Positions 56,624 to 63,871 of a stretch of 63,871 bases of DNA are shown piece by piece. Source of the stretch: Acidimicrobiia bacterium (GTDB lineage Bacteria > Actinomycetota > Acidimicrobiia > IMCC26256 > DASPTH01); assembly GCA_040880805.1 (NCBI GenBank), contig JBBDHW010000061.1, positions 1-63,871 of the forward strand, written 5' to 3'. The stretch's first letter is position 1. Each line of letters begins with the position of its first letter. The translations under genes were made by a program, and so were the position numbers. A model generated the notes under the pieces. The model saw only the letters and a program-made list of their open reading frames with translations. It was not told the origin of the DNA and made no database searches.

Positions 56624-56953
56624 TTCGATGCTCCTTCTCCCGAGGGCTGTCCGCCGCTCGGCGGATCAGAAACGAACACGGGAGCGTGACTCGGCTCACC
56701 GAATGTCACCGATTCACGCTCGGTCGTGTCCGCTCCATGCCGAACCACGGAACCGCGCGGCACGAAAAGGCCGTCCCGAAGTGTTCGACTGCGCACCATT
56801 CGCATCGCTGCCGTGCGTCTCGGGCCACACGATCGGACCAGCGTTGTGCGGCTCCGAGACGAGACGCTGCGCACGTCGGAAGGCAACGTGCCCGGCCAGG
56901 GTTCTCTCACCAGACAGCCGTCACGGCGTCCGGAAGGATCTGAACGTGGGACA

Positions 56954-58540
56954 GTGGCGAGTGTGAACGATCCCGACGCCAACGTGGCAGGTTCCCGGAC
57001 CCGCGTCGCCGATTACGCCCTGCTGTCGGACTGTCAAGGCGCTGCGCTGGTAAGTCGCGAAGGATCGATCGACTGGGCGTGTCTTCCTCGTTTCGACTCC
57101 CCCGCGGTGTTCGCGGGCCTTCTCGGTACCGGCGCCGGACACTGGCGGGTCGGGCCGCGCGACCCCGTCGCTGTCGAACGGGCATACCTCCCCGACACGA
57201 TGGTGCTGCGGACAACGGTTCGCAGCGCGGGCGGCGTCGTCACCGTCACCGACGCGATGGCGCTCGGCCCGCACGAGCACGGCCACGCGATCGGGACCGC
57301 GTCGCCGCACGTGCTGGCACGCCGAATCGACGGCATCGAAGGGACCGTCCCCGTCGAGTTCGAGCTTTCCGCACGACCGGAGTACGGGCTCACCGCGCCG
57401 CTCCTCGTGCCTGACGGCAGCGGATTCCGTACCCGCGGCGGCCCCAGCTCATATGTCCTCTCGACCGGGGTACCAGTGCAACTCGACGGCAGTGACTGCA
57501 CCGCCACCGTCGATGTCGCAGCAGGCGACACGCTGTACTTCGCGTTCGCGCTCGGATCACCATGGGACGACGACACCACCCGACAGCTCACCCAATCCGA
57601 GATCGCCGAGCTGCTCGACCGGACGATCGCGGCGTGGCAGTCATGGTCGGGCCTCCACCAGACCTACGACGGTCCCTACGCGCAGCTCGTCCGCCACAGC
57701 GGCCGCGTGCTCCAGGCGCTGAGCTACGCGCCGACCGGTGCGGTCATCGCCGCACCCACGACGTCGCTCCCCGAAACGCCGGGCGGGCCGCGCAACTGGG
57801 ACTACCGGTTTTGTTGGGTACGCGACGCCAGCCTCACCCTCGAGGCCTTATGGGTCGCGGCATGCCCCGACGAAGCCGAAAAGTTCTTCCGGTTCCTCGC
57901 CACCGCGGCCGGTGGACACCTCCGATCCAGTGGCGCGCTCCAAATTCTGTACGGCGTGGGCGGTGAGCGCCTCGTCGCCGAGCACGAACTCGAGCACCTC
58001 GACGGCTTCCTCGACAGTCGCCCGGTGCGCATCGGGAACGGCGCGTGGAACCAAGCCCAACTCGACGTGTACGGCGAGCTGCTCAGCGCGGCGTGTCTCC
58101 TCGCGACCACAGTCGGTTCCTTCGACGACATCAGTCGCGGGGGCGTTCGTTGCGCCCAGGTGGATGTCCCAAGGGCGACGTACTGCCCGAATCCTCGCAA
58201 CGCCGATGGAACACCAGCGTTCGGAGTCGTCGGTTCCGAAGAGCCGCTTCCGAAGGAACGGCTACACGCGTGGTACAAGGATCACAGCGACTATGTGCAC
58301 CGCTTCAATCGCAGTCTCGACGAACTGATCGCCGCCGGCTGGCTCCTACCCCTGCGCTGCATGATTCGGGCGTTTGACTTCAGGAGATCCTCCAGGCTGT
58401 CCGCGAAGGCGGTGGGACGGCTGCGTTCGTCGCCACGACACCGGAGCGCCGTGGTCGAAGGGGCCGACCAGCCAGTGGTCGTCCGACATACCTGTCTCAC
58501 GGCGCCGGTACACTGCGCGTCGTGGACCGAAAGGCCGTGA
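56954..58540 (+). pseudogene. GH15 glucoamylase/trehalase-like gene with its catalytic end replaced by a hydrolase tail
   Basis: From a GTG at 56954 the first 390 residues are a normal GH15 start: DYALLSDCQGAALVSREGSI, DWACLPRFDSPAVFAGLLG, PTTSLPETPGGPRNWDYRFC, WVRDASLTLEALW and GNGAWNQAQLDVYGELLSAA. Similarity ends at about 58135. The remainder (GGVRCAQVDVPRATYCPNPR, then YVHRFNRSLDELIAAGWLLP) resembles the C-terminus of the Abhydrolase_10 family. It ends in unrelated sequence to 58540. Both GH15 catalytic acids lie in the lost part, so glucosidase activity is not expected. The joint is in frame, implying a deletion fusion that could still be translated. Confidence 0.75.
58509..58521 (+). 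promoter_or_regulatory. Leaderless-type -10 element of the toxin-antitoxin-like pair
   Basis: TACACT (58509-58514) lies exactly 7 nt before the GTG at 58522, the actinobacterial leaderless pattern. It overlaps the end of the chimeric GH15 frame, so the small operon has its own promoter. Confidence 0.55.
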
Positions 58541-58701
58541 CCGCTGAGGAGTTCGAAGCACTTCCGCCTGCGGAGCAAGACCGAGTCTTCGCCGCGAGCA
58601 TCGTCACCGACCTCGCCGACGTACCACCCGAGTTCCTCGCGAAGGTCCGCGCCCGGGTCGAGGCGCGCCTCTCCGCGAGTGACGCCACTCGGAAGTCGTG
58701 A
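58522..58701 (+). CDS. 59-aa antitoxin-like small protein
   Basis: A short gene starting at GTG 58522 encodes MDRKAVTAEEFEALPPAEQD, then RVFAASIVTDLADVPPEFLA and a basic/acidic tail VRARVEARLSASDATRKS. Its composition (acidic helices) and position fit a type II antitoxin, but no DNA-binding motif is evident. The leaderless -10 box and the 4-bp GTGA overlap with the following gene support its reality. No family is recognised. Confidence 0.6.
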   Translation: MDRKAVTAEEFEALPPAEQDRVFAASIVTDLADVPPEFLAKVRARVEARLSASDATRKS

Positions 58702-59012
58702 CCGCGCAACGCAGAAGCGTTCGTGCAACAGCAACGTTCTTCGAGGATCTCGATGCTCAGCTCGGTCCTGAGCGCGGTCCCAGCGGTGAGCCGTCTGCCC
58801 ACGACTTCCTGGTGTTCGAGCTCCTGCGAATCGTCGAGGTCTTTGCCGCCCGATTCGATGAGCTTCCCGAGCTGATCCCGGGTCGACCGCAATACCGCTT
58901 GCTGATCGGTGCCGGGCTGTTGGTCCGCCGGTTCGCCGTCGTCGGTCAACTCGCAGCGGACGGCGCGGTCGAGCTTGTCGAGCTGGAGCTGGACCTCGAC
59001 GCGGCGCCGTAG
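58698..59012 (+). CDS. RelE/ParE-like toxin candidate
   Basis: The 104-aa protein begins RSVRATATFFEDLDAQLGPE. Helical and strand segments follow (FELLRIVEVFAARFDELPEL, PGRPQYRLLIGAGLLVRRFA) and a closing strand VVGQLAADGAVELVELELDL. The order helix-helix-YRLLI-strand-strand resembles the RelE/ParE fold (phage-derived Gp49-like group), though the catalytic residues cannot be named with certainty. Its start overlaps the antitoxin-like stop. Such pairs slow growth or stabilise DNA; this activity is inferred. It lies just downstream of the GH15 rearrangement. Confidence 0.6.
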   Translation: MTAQRRSVRATATFFEDLDAQLGPERGPSGEPSAHDFLVFELLRIVEVFAARFDELPELIPGRPQYRLLIGAGLLVRRFAVVGQLAADGAVELVELELDLDAAP

Positions 59013-59224
59013 GTCAAACCGACACGTCACGACAAATGTCGGCGAAGCGCTGCGGGTCTTCCCACCGCGGCGTGTGGGGACGCCCGGGTACACCAACAAC
59101 GTGGCGTCGGTGATACGCCCTTTGAGTAGGTCTTGCATGTCGCCATGCGCCGAGCGGCGGGCAGATGCTGCTCGGCCTACCCGCAACGCCGGTCGTAACC
59201 CGGTCGTGAGCTGGTATCAGCAAC

Positions 59225-59243
59225 TGTTGTAGCCTGCAACTCC
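59225..59243 (+). promoter_or_regulatory. Promoter and dyads of the MarR gene
   Basis: CAACTGTTG and GTTG-7-CAAC form overlapping dyads immediately before the start. The TANNNT box TAGCCT (59230-59235) lies 8 nt before the GTG at 59244. The arrangement fits autoregulation by the MarR protein. Confidence 0.4.
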
Positions 59244-59756
59244 GTGGGCCGTACTGATGTGCGAGCGGGTTCTGGGAAGCGGACGGATCGCAGCGAGATC
59301 GGCGAAGTCGTCGATGGGGTGTTGCGTGCGTCGCGGGTCTTGGTCGCGGTCGCCGCACGTTCGCTTGTCGACGTCGACCGTGATGTGACGCTGCCGCAGT
59401 TTCGGGCTCTGATCGTTCTCGCGAGTCGCGGCGGGCTCAATCCGGGTGCGTTCGCCGACGCTCTCGGCGTGCATGTTTCGACCGCGACGCGGATGTGTGA
59501 TCGTCTCGTGGCCAAAGGTCTGATCAGCCGCGAGGTTCCGCGGACGAATCGCCGCGAGATCGTGCTCGCGTTGACGCCGCGGGGGCGTCGCATCGTGGAC
59601 TCGGTGACTCGGCGGCGGCGAACGGAAATTGCGCGGATCGTCAAGAGTGTTCCCAAATCGCAGCGGGCGTCGATGGTGCGTGCGCTGCGCGCCTTTGGTG
59701 ACGCTGCCGGTGAGCCTCCAGTCGAGGGTTGGTCGCTGGGATGGGTCGAGGAATGA
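59244..59756 (+). CDS. MarR-family transcriptional regulator
   Basis: The 170-aa protein has the winged-helix MarR core: VTLPQFRALIVLASRGGLNP, FADALGVHVSTATRMCDRLV as recognition helix, KGLISREVPRTNRREIVLAL as wing, and TPRGRRIVDSVTRRRRTEIA leading into the C-terminal dimer helix. It would respond to a small ligand or thiol oxidation; one Cys (MCDRLV) lies in the recognition helix. The GTG at 59244 is preceded by dyads. The ClC channel gene starts 54 bp downstream on the same strand and may be its target. Confidence 0.88.
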   Translation: MGRTDVRAGSGKRTDRSEIGEVVDGVLRASRVLVAVAARSLVDVDRDVTLPQFRALIVLASRGGLNPGAFADALGVHVSTATRMCDRLVAKGLISREVPRTNRREIVLALTPRGRRIVDSVTRRRRTEIARIVKSVPKSQRASMVRALRAFGDAAGEPPVEGWSLGWVEE

Positions 59757-62351: not shown

Positions 62352-63146
62352 TCACTCGTGGTCGAGTTGGGCGATGAGATTCTTCGGCGCCACCTGGCGG
62401 AAGGCATCCTCGATGATGGCGGCGATCTCGTCCCAATCAACCTTGTTTGCGCCTGACGTGTCGAGGAACACGCCGAGCCACCCCGAGAACGTCCCACTCG
62501 CCGACGGGGTCGGCTCGAAGAATCGGTCCGGTTCGGCGCCCACGAGTTCCTCGGCGACGCCAGGCGGGGCGGGACACCACAACGAGATCCGGCCATCGCC
62601 GCGATGGTCGTCGTGGTAGTAGCAGAGCGGCCGGCTGTCTTGGATGAAGAAGCAGCGTGCCCCGTGGCTGAGCCGCTCGTTCACTCCGGGGAATGCGAGC
62701 GCAATCTCGCGCACGCGCTCGTATTCACGCTCTCCCATCCGGAGACTCTCGCGCAGACTGAACATTGCCGAGAGGGAAGGTCCTCGCTTCCGTTGGGACT
62801 TTGGTGTGACCGAGCGCCGGACGGCGGCAAGCTCGAGGGCTTCCTCGAGGAGGGGCTGCCAGCTTCGGTGGCGTCGGTGGGGGACGGTCACCCACTCGCG
62901 GAAGCGACGCCCGCTGGGCGCGAACGGTTCCGCCTTGCCGGCATCGATGAGAGCAGAAGCTCGTTCCTCGTTGAGCTTGACGACGAGCTCGCCCGTGCGG
63001 TGATCGCAGCTGGCAAAGAAGTCACCGTCGAGGCGCAGGCAGGGAAAGCCCATCATCGTGGAGCGGGTGACGCCGGCCCGCTGGAGCAGCGGTGTCGCGA
63101 GCGCCCAGAAGCGCTCTTGTTCGGGACTGTTGGCATGTGCGGTCAT
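62352..63146 (-). CDS. Tandem TfoX/YjbR-like and MmcQ/YjbR (DUF419) protein
   Basis: The 264-aa protein joins two related small domains. Residues 5-110 (TMMGFPCLRLDGDFFASCDH, LVVKLNEERASALIDAGKAE, PSGRRFREWVTVPHRRHRSW) resemble TfoX-N/YjbR-like proteins. Residues about 130-264 (ERVREIALAFPGVNERLSHG, RCFFIQDSRPLCYYHDDHRG, GWLGVFLDTSGANKVDWDEI) are an MmcQ/YjbR double-wing DNA-binding-like domain. Both are usually encoded separately. The ATG overlaps the upstream AHSA1 stop (ATGA), so it is the third gene of a coupled ArsR-AHSA1 operon. Function unknown. Confidence 0.82.
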   Translation of the reverse strand: MTAHANSPEQERFWALATPLLQRAGVTRSTMMGFPCLRLDGDFFASCDHRTGELVVKLNEERASALIDAGKAEPFAPSGRRFREWVTVPHRRHRSWQPLLEEALELAAVRRSVTPKSQRKRGPSLSAMFSLRESLRMGEREYERVREIALAFPGVNERLSHGARCFFIQDSRPLCYYHDDHRGDGRISLWCPAPPGVAEELVGAEPDRFFEPTPSASGTFSGWLGVFLDTSGANKVDWDEIAAIIEDAFRQVAPKNLIAQLDHE

Positions 63147-63610
63147 GTCAGACCGAGCTCGTGGGCGGTCGGGACGCGCTGGTCCGCGAGTTGATCGACG
63201 CCGGGGTCTCGGCCTTCGGCGACGGCGGCCAACCGCGCCAGGTAGTTGCTCCAGCCGCCGGAGTGCGCGTCGGCCATCGGTCCGGCGAGCCCGCGATGTA
63301 TGAGGCGAAGCTCGGTGCCCGCGTCGCGCGGTCGCAGGTCGATCTCGACCGTGGTCGATCCGGGTGCGATCCCGACATCGGCGCGATCCCAGCCGAAGGT
63401 GAACACGACGCGCCGGTCGGGCACGAGCTCGACGAACGCGCCGACGACACTGTCGCCGCTGCTGTGCGTCCAGGAAAGCGCGCCTCCAGCTTTCGGATCG
63501 GCCTGCGCCACGGGCGCCATCCATTCGGTCAGCAGCTCGGCGTCGGTCAACAACGCGTACACGCGCGCCGGCGGCGCGTCGATGAACAGCCGCTGCTCGA
63601 CCAGCTTCAC
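63143..63610 (-). CDS. AHSA1/SRPBCC-family protein
   Basis: The 155-aa protein has the START-like fold of AHSA1 homologues: VEQRLFIDAPPARVYALLTD, LLTEWMAPVAQADPKAGGAL, RRVVFTFGWDRADVGIAPGS, and the closing helix GWSNYLARLAAVAEGRDPG. Such proteins bind hydrophobic ligands or assist regulators. They are very often encoded directly after an ArsR-type repressor, as here. The GTG start at 63610 overlaps the ArsR stop (GTGA), and its own stop overlaps the next ATG. Confidence 0.88.
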   Translation of the reverse strand: MKLVEQRLFIDAPPARVYALLTDAELLTEWMAPVAQADPKAGGALSWTHSSGDSVVGAFVELVPDRRVVFTFGWDRADVGIAPGSTTVEIDLRPRDAGTELRLIHRGLAGPMADAHSGGWSNYLARLAAVAEGRDPGVDQLADQRVPTAHELGLT

Positions 63611-63871
63611 GCCGACGTTCGCTTCCGACCGCGCGTCGGCACCTGCGCTTCGGCACGCGTCTTGAGCGAGTCGAGTCGGTCGCCCCACAGCTCGTCCAAC
63701 GCGGCGCGAACCTCGGCCAACCGCTGCAGATCGACGTGGTAGAGGCGCCGCTTCGCGTCCACGCGGACGTGCATGAGGCCCGTCGTGCGCAGGAGTTTCA
63801 AGTGCGGGCTCGCGGCCGACGGTGACAACCCGGCGACCTCGGCGAGCTCGGACGCGCTGCGCTCCTCGTCG
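63607..63871 (-). CDS. ArsR-family regulator (N-terminus outside window)
   Basis: The visible 87 residues include the recognition helix GLSPSAASPHLKLLRTTGLM and the wing HVRVDAKRRLYHVDLQRLAE, followed by a tail LDSLKTRAEAQVPTRGRKR. No metal-binding Cys is seen. This subgroup, paired with AHSA1 proteins, usually senses something other than metal. The frame is open to the right edge. It is the first visible gene of the ArsR-AHSA1-YjbR operon. Confidence 0.85.
   Translation of the reverse strand, partial: DEERSASELAEVAGLSPSAASPHLKLLRTTGLMHVRVDAKRRLYHVDLQRLAEVRAALDELWGDRLDSLKTRAEAQVPTRGRKRTSA

What the first reader, a model, noticed from the sequence alone, without database searches (positions are those of the whole stretch)
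58509..59012. Leaderless two-gene toxin-antitoxin candidate missed by length filters
A 59-aa acidic protein and a 104-aa RelE/ParE-like protein overlap by GTGA and are driven by a TACACT box 7 nt from the first start. The pair lies at a rearrangement joint. The antitoxin has no recognised DNA-binding domain and may define a new partner type.
Basis: partly seen in the sequence, partly recalled or inferred. Interest (0 to 1): 0.52.

Follow-up and report, generated by a model that had tools for sequence, protein, structure and literature searches.

The report
Acidic RelE/ParE-fold toxin-antitoxin candidate
Two tiny overlapping genes in an uncultured actinobacterium form a conserved pair that looks like a toxin and its antidote; the toxin-like protein has a familiar toxin shape but an unusually acidic make-up, and related toxins elsewhere are paired with a completely different antidote.

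Summary
In a class sample of 395 genomes all 30 loci of the 104-aa family have an upstream partner: 24 the 59-aa family, 6 an unrelated SocA/Panacea antitoxin. AlphaFold2 (pLDDT 94) gives the 104-aa protein a RelE/ParE topology (PfiT Z 10.0). TANNNT lies 6-8 nt before 20 of 24 antitoxin starts (0.16 expected), so leaderless transcription is conserved. New: the two partner classes split the toxin tree once (99/99), a partner swap; the toxins are acidic (pI 4.1-4.9, 24 of 24 intact) while 12 PF05016 domains from related genomes are basic (8.2-11.3). Pfam, NCBIfam, PHROGs and PADLOC know neither protein. Best reading: a type II toxin-antitoxin family with a mini-antitoxin lacking a DNA-binding domain and a RelE/ParE-fold toxin, probably not a RelE-type mRNase. 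Toxicity, neutralisation and target are untested. New variant of a known kind.

The parts
58509..58514 (+). TACACT, -10-like box of a leaderless promoter, 7 nt before the antitoxin start
   Evidence: sequence; TANNNT at gap 6-8 in 20 of 24 loci, about 0.16 expected, 14 of 3784 control ATG/GTG in the window
58522..58701 (+). 59-aa antitoxin candidate, acidic (pI 5.0), predicted helical, no recognised domain
   Evidence: homologues directly upstream of the toxin gene
58698..58701 (+). GTGA overlap of the antitoxin stop and the toxin start (translational coupling inferred)
   Evidence: sequence; 4-nt overlap in 19 of 24 loci with the starts chosen here
58698..59012 (+). 104-aa toxin candidate, RelE/ParE (BECR) fold by prediction, acidic (pI 4.6)
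56726..58351 (+). context: chimeric ORF, truncated GH15 gene joined between about 58094 and 58127 to an Abhydrolase_10 remnant (58127-58351)

Best explanation
A two-gene type II toxin-antitoxin module. One leaderless mRNA starts at or beside the GTG of the 59-aa gene (inferred from the conserved TANNNT box). The 59-aa protein, mostly helical and without a recognised DNA-binding domain, is made first and binds the 104-aa protein; the GTGA overlap couples translation of the second gene to the first (inferred). The 104-aa protein has the RelE/ParE (BECR) fold but is acidic and shows no conserved C-terminal catalytic residues, so it most likely acts ParE-like, by binding a protein target, rather than as a RelE-type ribosome-dependent mRNase (inferred, about 0.55 within the TA reading). 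The toxin family has once exchanged antitoxin partner between Panacea and the 59-aa protein. Shown by computation: conservation of both frames and of the pairing, predicted fold, promoter box, homology of the toxins of the two partner classes. Inferred: toxicity, neutralisation by direct binding, coupling, target class.
For: Pairing: 30 of 30 toxin loci of the class search have one of two partner types upstream, 24 the 59-aa and 6 Panacea. Fold: pLDDT 94.4, pTM 0.85, order b-a-a-b-b-b; Z 10.0 to PfiT, 9.4 to RelE2 and 9.1 to RelE1 of M. tuberculosis, 9.0 to ParE2 of PaaA2-ParE2. Partner homology: profiles of 59-aa-partnered and Panacea-partnered toxins align at probability 98.8, E 8e-17 over 94 columns; Panacea is an antitoxin domain tested in the literature (PMC8832971, section 5 part 1 read). 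Tree: the partner types are the two sides of one branch, 99/99, and genomes of different orders are mixed. Asymmetric decay: 7 of 26 toxin genes are broken beside a full-length antitoxin frame, none the reverse. A chain that reads L005's antitoxin and toxin through the stop between them folds at pLDDT 90.5, pTM 0.84 with both parts ordered. Acidity: pI 4.1-4.9 in 18 of 18 plus 6 of 6 intact toxins against 8.2-11.3 in 12 PF05016 domains.
Against: No toxicity or rescue data. Foldseek finds no match at E <= 0.001 (best 0.01), and no sequence method links the toxin to a solved structure. The pTM of the read-through chain is for a tethered, artificial chain and contacts could not be inspected. Asymmetric decay is weak statistically (about 0.04 if breaks fell by gene length, my arithmetic), and draft contigs carry errors. 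The family is nearly confined to one class (2 of 396 in a phylum sample, both of that class) and has no match in the plasmids and phages searched, which is less mobile than a classic TA.
Confidence: 0.74

Rival explanations
1. The pair is a TA module but the toxin is a ribosome-dependent mRNase like RelE, with unusual active-site residues.
For: Z 9.4 and 9.1 to RelE2 and RelE1 of M. tuberculosis and 8.9 to E. coli RelE; invariant or nearly invariant arginines R5, R6, R9, R26, R67 could serve catalysis. PMC11980606 (passages read) says that the fold alone does not separate mRNases from gyrase inhibitors.
Against: Acidic in 24 of 24 intact members, basic in 12 of 12 PF05016 domains of related genomes, 11 of which end in HRxxxY; no conserved His, Tyr, Lys or Arg in strand 4 or the tail here.
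Confidence: 0.2
2. A two-gene module that is not toxin-antitoxin: for instance a small regulator and its effector, or two subunits of one acidic complex, on a RelE/ParE-like scaffold.
For: Both partners are acidic; related folds also occur outside TA, e.g. TrmO at Z 6.9; no DNA-binding domain in the small protein; no library of defence or phage proteins knows it.
Against: Six relatives are paired with Panacea, an antitoxin domain; partner exchange, patchy spread, tandem copies and broken toxins next to intact partners fit TA.
Confidence: 0.2
3. Chance ORFs in GC-rich remnant DNA at a deletion joint.
For: The pair sits beside two gene remnants, and open antisense frames are common here.
Against: Matches in 21 of 395 class genomes, codon-position pattern, conserved pairing and promoter box.
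Confidence: 0.01

Closest known systems
RelE/ParE (BECR-fold) toxins; closest solved: PfiT of PfiAT (9w3a), RelE2 (3g5o) and RelE1 (9g12) of M. tuberculosis, ParE2 of PaaA2-ParE2 (5czf)
   Same: size, strand-helix order, antitoxin-first two-gene layout
   Different: no Pfam or PDB sequence match; acidic instead of basic; conserved R-G-x-P-S-x-x-D-F loop between helices 1 and 2; no conserved catalytic C-terminus
PanAT systems (Panacea/DUF4065/SocA antitoxin, PF13274; PMC8832971, PMC10440598)
   Same: six distant relatives of the 104-aa toxin are partnered with Panacea antitoxins in the same bacterial class
   Different: the window's partner is a 59-aa protein with no Panacea domain; no homology found between it and the Panacea proteins
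PaaR-PaaA-ParE of E. coli O157 (that the antitoxin needs a third regulator gene: passages of PMC4803016)
   Same: small antitoxin with a ParE-fold toxin (fold Z 9.0 to ParE2)
   Different: no third gene conserved: the downstream MarR gene has no tblastn match in any of 24 related loci

Membership tests
Type II toxin-antitoxin module | two small adjacent, co-oriented genes that stay together across genomes | tested here: met
   24 of 30 toxin loci with the 59-aa partner, 6 with Panacea, none without
Type II toxin-antitoxin module | toxin inhibits growth and antitoxin protein neutralises it by binding | not testable with these tools
   needs expression and rescue assays; the read-through model is only suggestive
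Type II toxin-antitoxin module | antitoxin, alone or in complex, represses its own operon (usual, not universal) | tested here: inconclusive
   no DNA-binding family at E <= 0.1 in 24 antitoxins; 12 aligned upstream stretches conserve little but the -10-like box
RelE/ParE (BECR) superfamily | b-a-a-b-b-b fold | tested here: met
   (predicted model)
RelE/ParE (BECR) superfamily | sequence match to one of its Pfam families | tested here: not met
   no family at E <= 1 for the 8 members of A1 nor for 6 further toxins
RelE-type mRNases | catalytic residues on the strands and C-terminal tail | tested here: inconclusive
   no conserved basic, His or Tyr residue in strand 4 or the tail, but residues were not superposed on RelE
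ParE gyrase inhibitors | inhibits DNA gyrase | not testable with these tools
   biochemical
PanAT | antitoxin carries PF13274 | tested here: not met
   window antitoxin has no such match and no profile homology to the Panacea partners
PanAT | toxin belongs to a family that is partnered with Panacea | tested here: met
   hhalign probability 98.8, E 8e-17; partners PF13274 in 6 of 6

The most novel reading that the evidence does not exclude
A toxin family on the RelE/ParE scaffold that has turned acidic and hits a target other than mRNA on the ribosome, and that has swapped antitoxins between Panacea (thought to sense triggers) and a 59-aa protein without a DNA-binding domain, expressed without a leader: the same toxin with and without the sensor domain, a natural experiment on what Panacea does.
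Probability: 0.35. Interest if true: 0.65.

Novelty: new variant of a known kind. Interest (0 to 1): 0.5.

Why it matters
PMC10440598 (passages read) proposes that Panacea senses triggers while other elements neutralise. A toxin family that exists with Panacea and with an unrelated mini-antitoxin in the same bacterial class lets that idea be tested directly. The acidic toxins also raise the question whether the RelE/ParE fold has a target beyond mRNA and gyrase, and the family is invisible to the four protein-family libraries searched here.

Tried and rejected
Homology of the 59-aa protein to the C-terminal tail of the Panacea partners: looked alike by eye, but the profile comparison gave probability 1, E 0.055 over 14 unrelated columns; rejected. 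Third component: the MarR gene 59244-59756 and the CLC channel gene downstream have no tblastn match at E <= 1e-3 in 24 related loci, most with about 1.5 kb flanks; rejected. PDB by sequence: nothing for the toxin alone, only chance-level matches with profiles. Rfam: nothing in 58000-59300. Sigma-70 promoter or terminator by consensus: none. Plasmids and phages by tblastn: none. Viral contigs: one scan with a single relative, none. The structural search of the read-through model matched mainly its toxin part, residues 64-163, so the antitoxin fold is not placed. Viral structure library: no match at E <= 0.001.

Limits of the counts: the genome searches score only the best 12-16 candidates per genome, so tallies are lower bounds. 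The -10 count used 24 of the 26 known 59-aa pairs (left out: L039 and the second pair of L022); start codons were chosen by hand among alternatives, for nine loci after I had seen the boxes; L022, L029, L033 and L045 lack the box. Broken toxins (L007, L022 first copy, L045, L046/L036, L037, L047, L039) were left out of alignments A3 and A8. A1, used for the class search, already held one Panacea-partnered toxin (L018), so the homology test was redone with separated sets. The count of 19 came from a slicing slip and was redone (20). Two antitoxin-like hits without a seen toxin are G298 (one in-frame stop, L073) and G051:C212 (locus not fetched); most weaker hits were not examined. The pI of the PF05016 controls is for the matched domain only, and 2 of 14 (short matches) were left out.

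Full report
The window is contig C61 of a 3.49 Mb, 69-contig assembly. Its class is not named; the one named record with the pair is an Acidimicrobiaceae MAG, so I take the host for an acidimicrobial actinobacterium (inference).

Neither protein reaches any family. Pfam at E <= 1 gives one poor hit for the antitoxin (FAA_hydrolase_N, 0.12) and none for the toxin; NCBIfam none; PHROGs one for the antitoxin at 0.077; PADLOC none. All 24 aligned antitoxins against Pfam give six single-member hits at 0.024 or worse; all 24 aligned toxins against NCBIfam give none.

Homologues: 15 of 100 relatives match the toxin at E <= 0.1, of which only the window's own genome and five others are strong (E 2.8e-10 or better: G005, G073, G006, G034, G051). 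A profile finds 21 of 395 class genomes at E <= 0.001, 31 rows at 30 loci (the gene of G272 is split between two frames and fills two rows). The antitoxin profile finds 38 of 395 at E <= 0.01, with a gap between E 4e-18 and 1e-10 below which matches are doubtful. In a phylum sample 2 of 396 genomes match, the window's own and one of its class. With every locus read in the right orientation, 24 of the 30 toxin loci carry the 59-aa family directly upstream, 6 carry a protein with the SocA/Panacea domain (6 of 6, best E 4.3e-18), and none has neither. The named MAG locus L022 adds two more 59-aa pairs on opposite strands, 26 in all.

The toxins of the two partner classes are homologous: separate profiles align at probability 98.8, E 8e-17, 94 columns, and among 2811 ORFs each profile picks out members of the other class, the weakest Panacea-partnered one at E 5.9e-4. 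In the maximum-likelihood tree the two partner types lie on either side of one branch (99/99, one change against a shuffled mean of 5.5). So the family changed antitoxin once; the direction is not known. The tree also mixes genomes of different orders, as expected of transferred genes.

Fold: AlphaFold2 on the 24-row alignment gives pLDDT 94.4 and pTM 0.85 with strand 8-10, helices 12-22 and 34-55, strands 66-71, 78-85 and 91-99. Foldseek's best matches are HigB2, PfiT and ParE1 (E 0.01-0.06; none <= 0.001). VIA-align: PfiT Z 10.0 (93 residues, 3.3 A), RelE2 9.4, RelE1 9.1, ParE of 5ceg 9.1, ParE2 9.0; rows 1-33 are toxins of this superfamily before TrmO at 6.9. Z near 8 can be a common arrangement, but here the list is uniform. 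Positions alike in 16 or more of 18 rows: R5 R6 V8 R9 F15 L18 D19 L22 R26 G30 P32 S33 D36 F37 A50 F53 R67 G73 L75 V81 D88 D99. The conserved loop R26-F37 between the helices is a family mark.

Charge: pI is 4.1-4.9 in 18 of 18 intact 59-aa-partnered toxins and 4.1-4.8 in 6 of 6 Panacea-partnered toxins; antitoxins 4.3-5.3. As control I took the PF05016 matches in 61 relatives (14 matches) and computed 12 of them, leaving out two short matches: 8.2-11.3 for the matched domains, 11 of 12 ending in HRxxxY. PMC11980606 (abstract, outline and passages seen) states that ParE toxins share the fold and lack the catalytic residues of the RNases. I therefore favour a ParE-like, protein-binding action, or a new target, over mRNA cleavage; this is inference.

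Antitoxin: in the L005 read-through chain (pLDDT 90.5, pTM 0.84) the 59-aa part shows helices 8-12, 16-25 and 36-53, with no obvious helix-turn-helix or ribbon-helix-helix pattern; the toxin part keeps its fold. The tether is artificial and I could not see contacts, so this is only compatible with binding.

Expression: TANNNT lies 6-8 nt before the antitoxin start in 20 of 24 loci; the rate elsewhere in the same upstream DNA predicts 0.16, and 14 of 3784 arbitrary ATG/GTG in the window have it. An alignment of 12 upstream stretches conserves little besides that box. Leaderless-gene signals of Actinobacteria have this sequence and place (PMC3160421, passages seen; there more than a fifth of genes), so leaderless expression is well supported but is not special to TA. 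A 4-nt overlap of the genes holds in 19 of 24 loci with my starts.

Decay: in 7 of 26 pairs the toxin frame is broken (in-frame stop, frameshift or replaced end) while the antitoxin is full length; the reverse was not seen. This fits a toxic product but is weak evidence.

Joint: similarity to the genome's own GH15 gene ends about 58094 (73% over 497 bases to L086), and an Abhydrolase_10 remnant (profile 350-421 of 429) follows at 58127-58351. The remnant is only 35-37% like three of the genome's other copies, so the joint is not a mix-up with those; an assembly error from elsewhere is not excluded.

Papers: PMC8832971 (section 5 part 1 and passages), PMC10440598 (passages), PMC11980606 (abstract, outline, passages), PMC3160421, PMC13048266 and PMC4803016 (passages). 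The listings of searches showed no description of this pair; supplementary tables of the Panacea and NetFlax papers were not open to me, so the Panacea-partnered relatives may be listed there.

Noticed in passing
window 56726-58540: Chimeric ORF: trehalase-like/GH15 N-terminal part joined in frame to the tail of an Abhydrolase_10 protein; the genome has three further, nearly full-length GH15 matches and several Abhydrolase_10 matches.
   Followed up: partly
L005 about 1213-1299; L006 and L017 upstream of each antitoxin: In G006 and in both tandem copies of G034 a short reading frame ending VELIGxLSHPxDxM... stops inside the antitoxin's -10 box (its stop codon is the first half of the box); differences look mostly synonymous by eye. 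A motif search of the other loci held found it nowhere else.
   Followed up: partly
L006 774-1985 (G034 C96): Two complete pairs in tandem about 715 bp apart; both toxins 54% identical to the window toxin over the alignment.
   Followed up: no
L022 4825-6465: Two pairs on opposite strands within 1.7 kb; the first toxin has an in-frame stop and its antitoxin lacks the -10 box.
   Followed up: no
L107 (G006 C28 105158-105307): A partial PF05016 (ParE/RelE) match lies about 1.3 kb from the new pair in G006, a possible small toxin-antitoxin cluster.
   Followed up: no
window 62352-63656 (- strand): 434-aa frame with two YjbR stretches and a weak TfoX_N match, possibly more than one gene in one open frame.
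   Followed up: no
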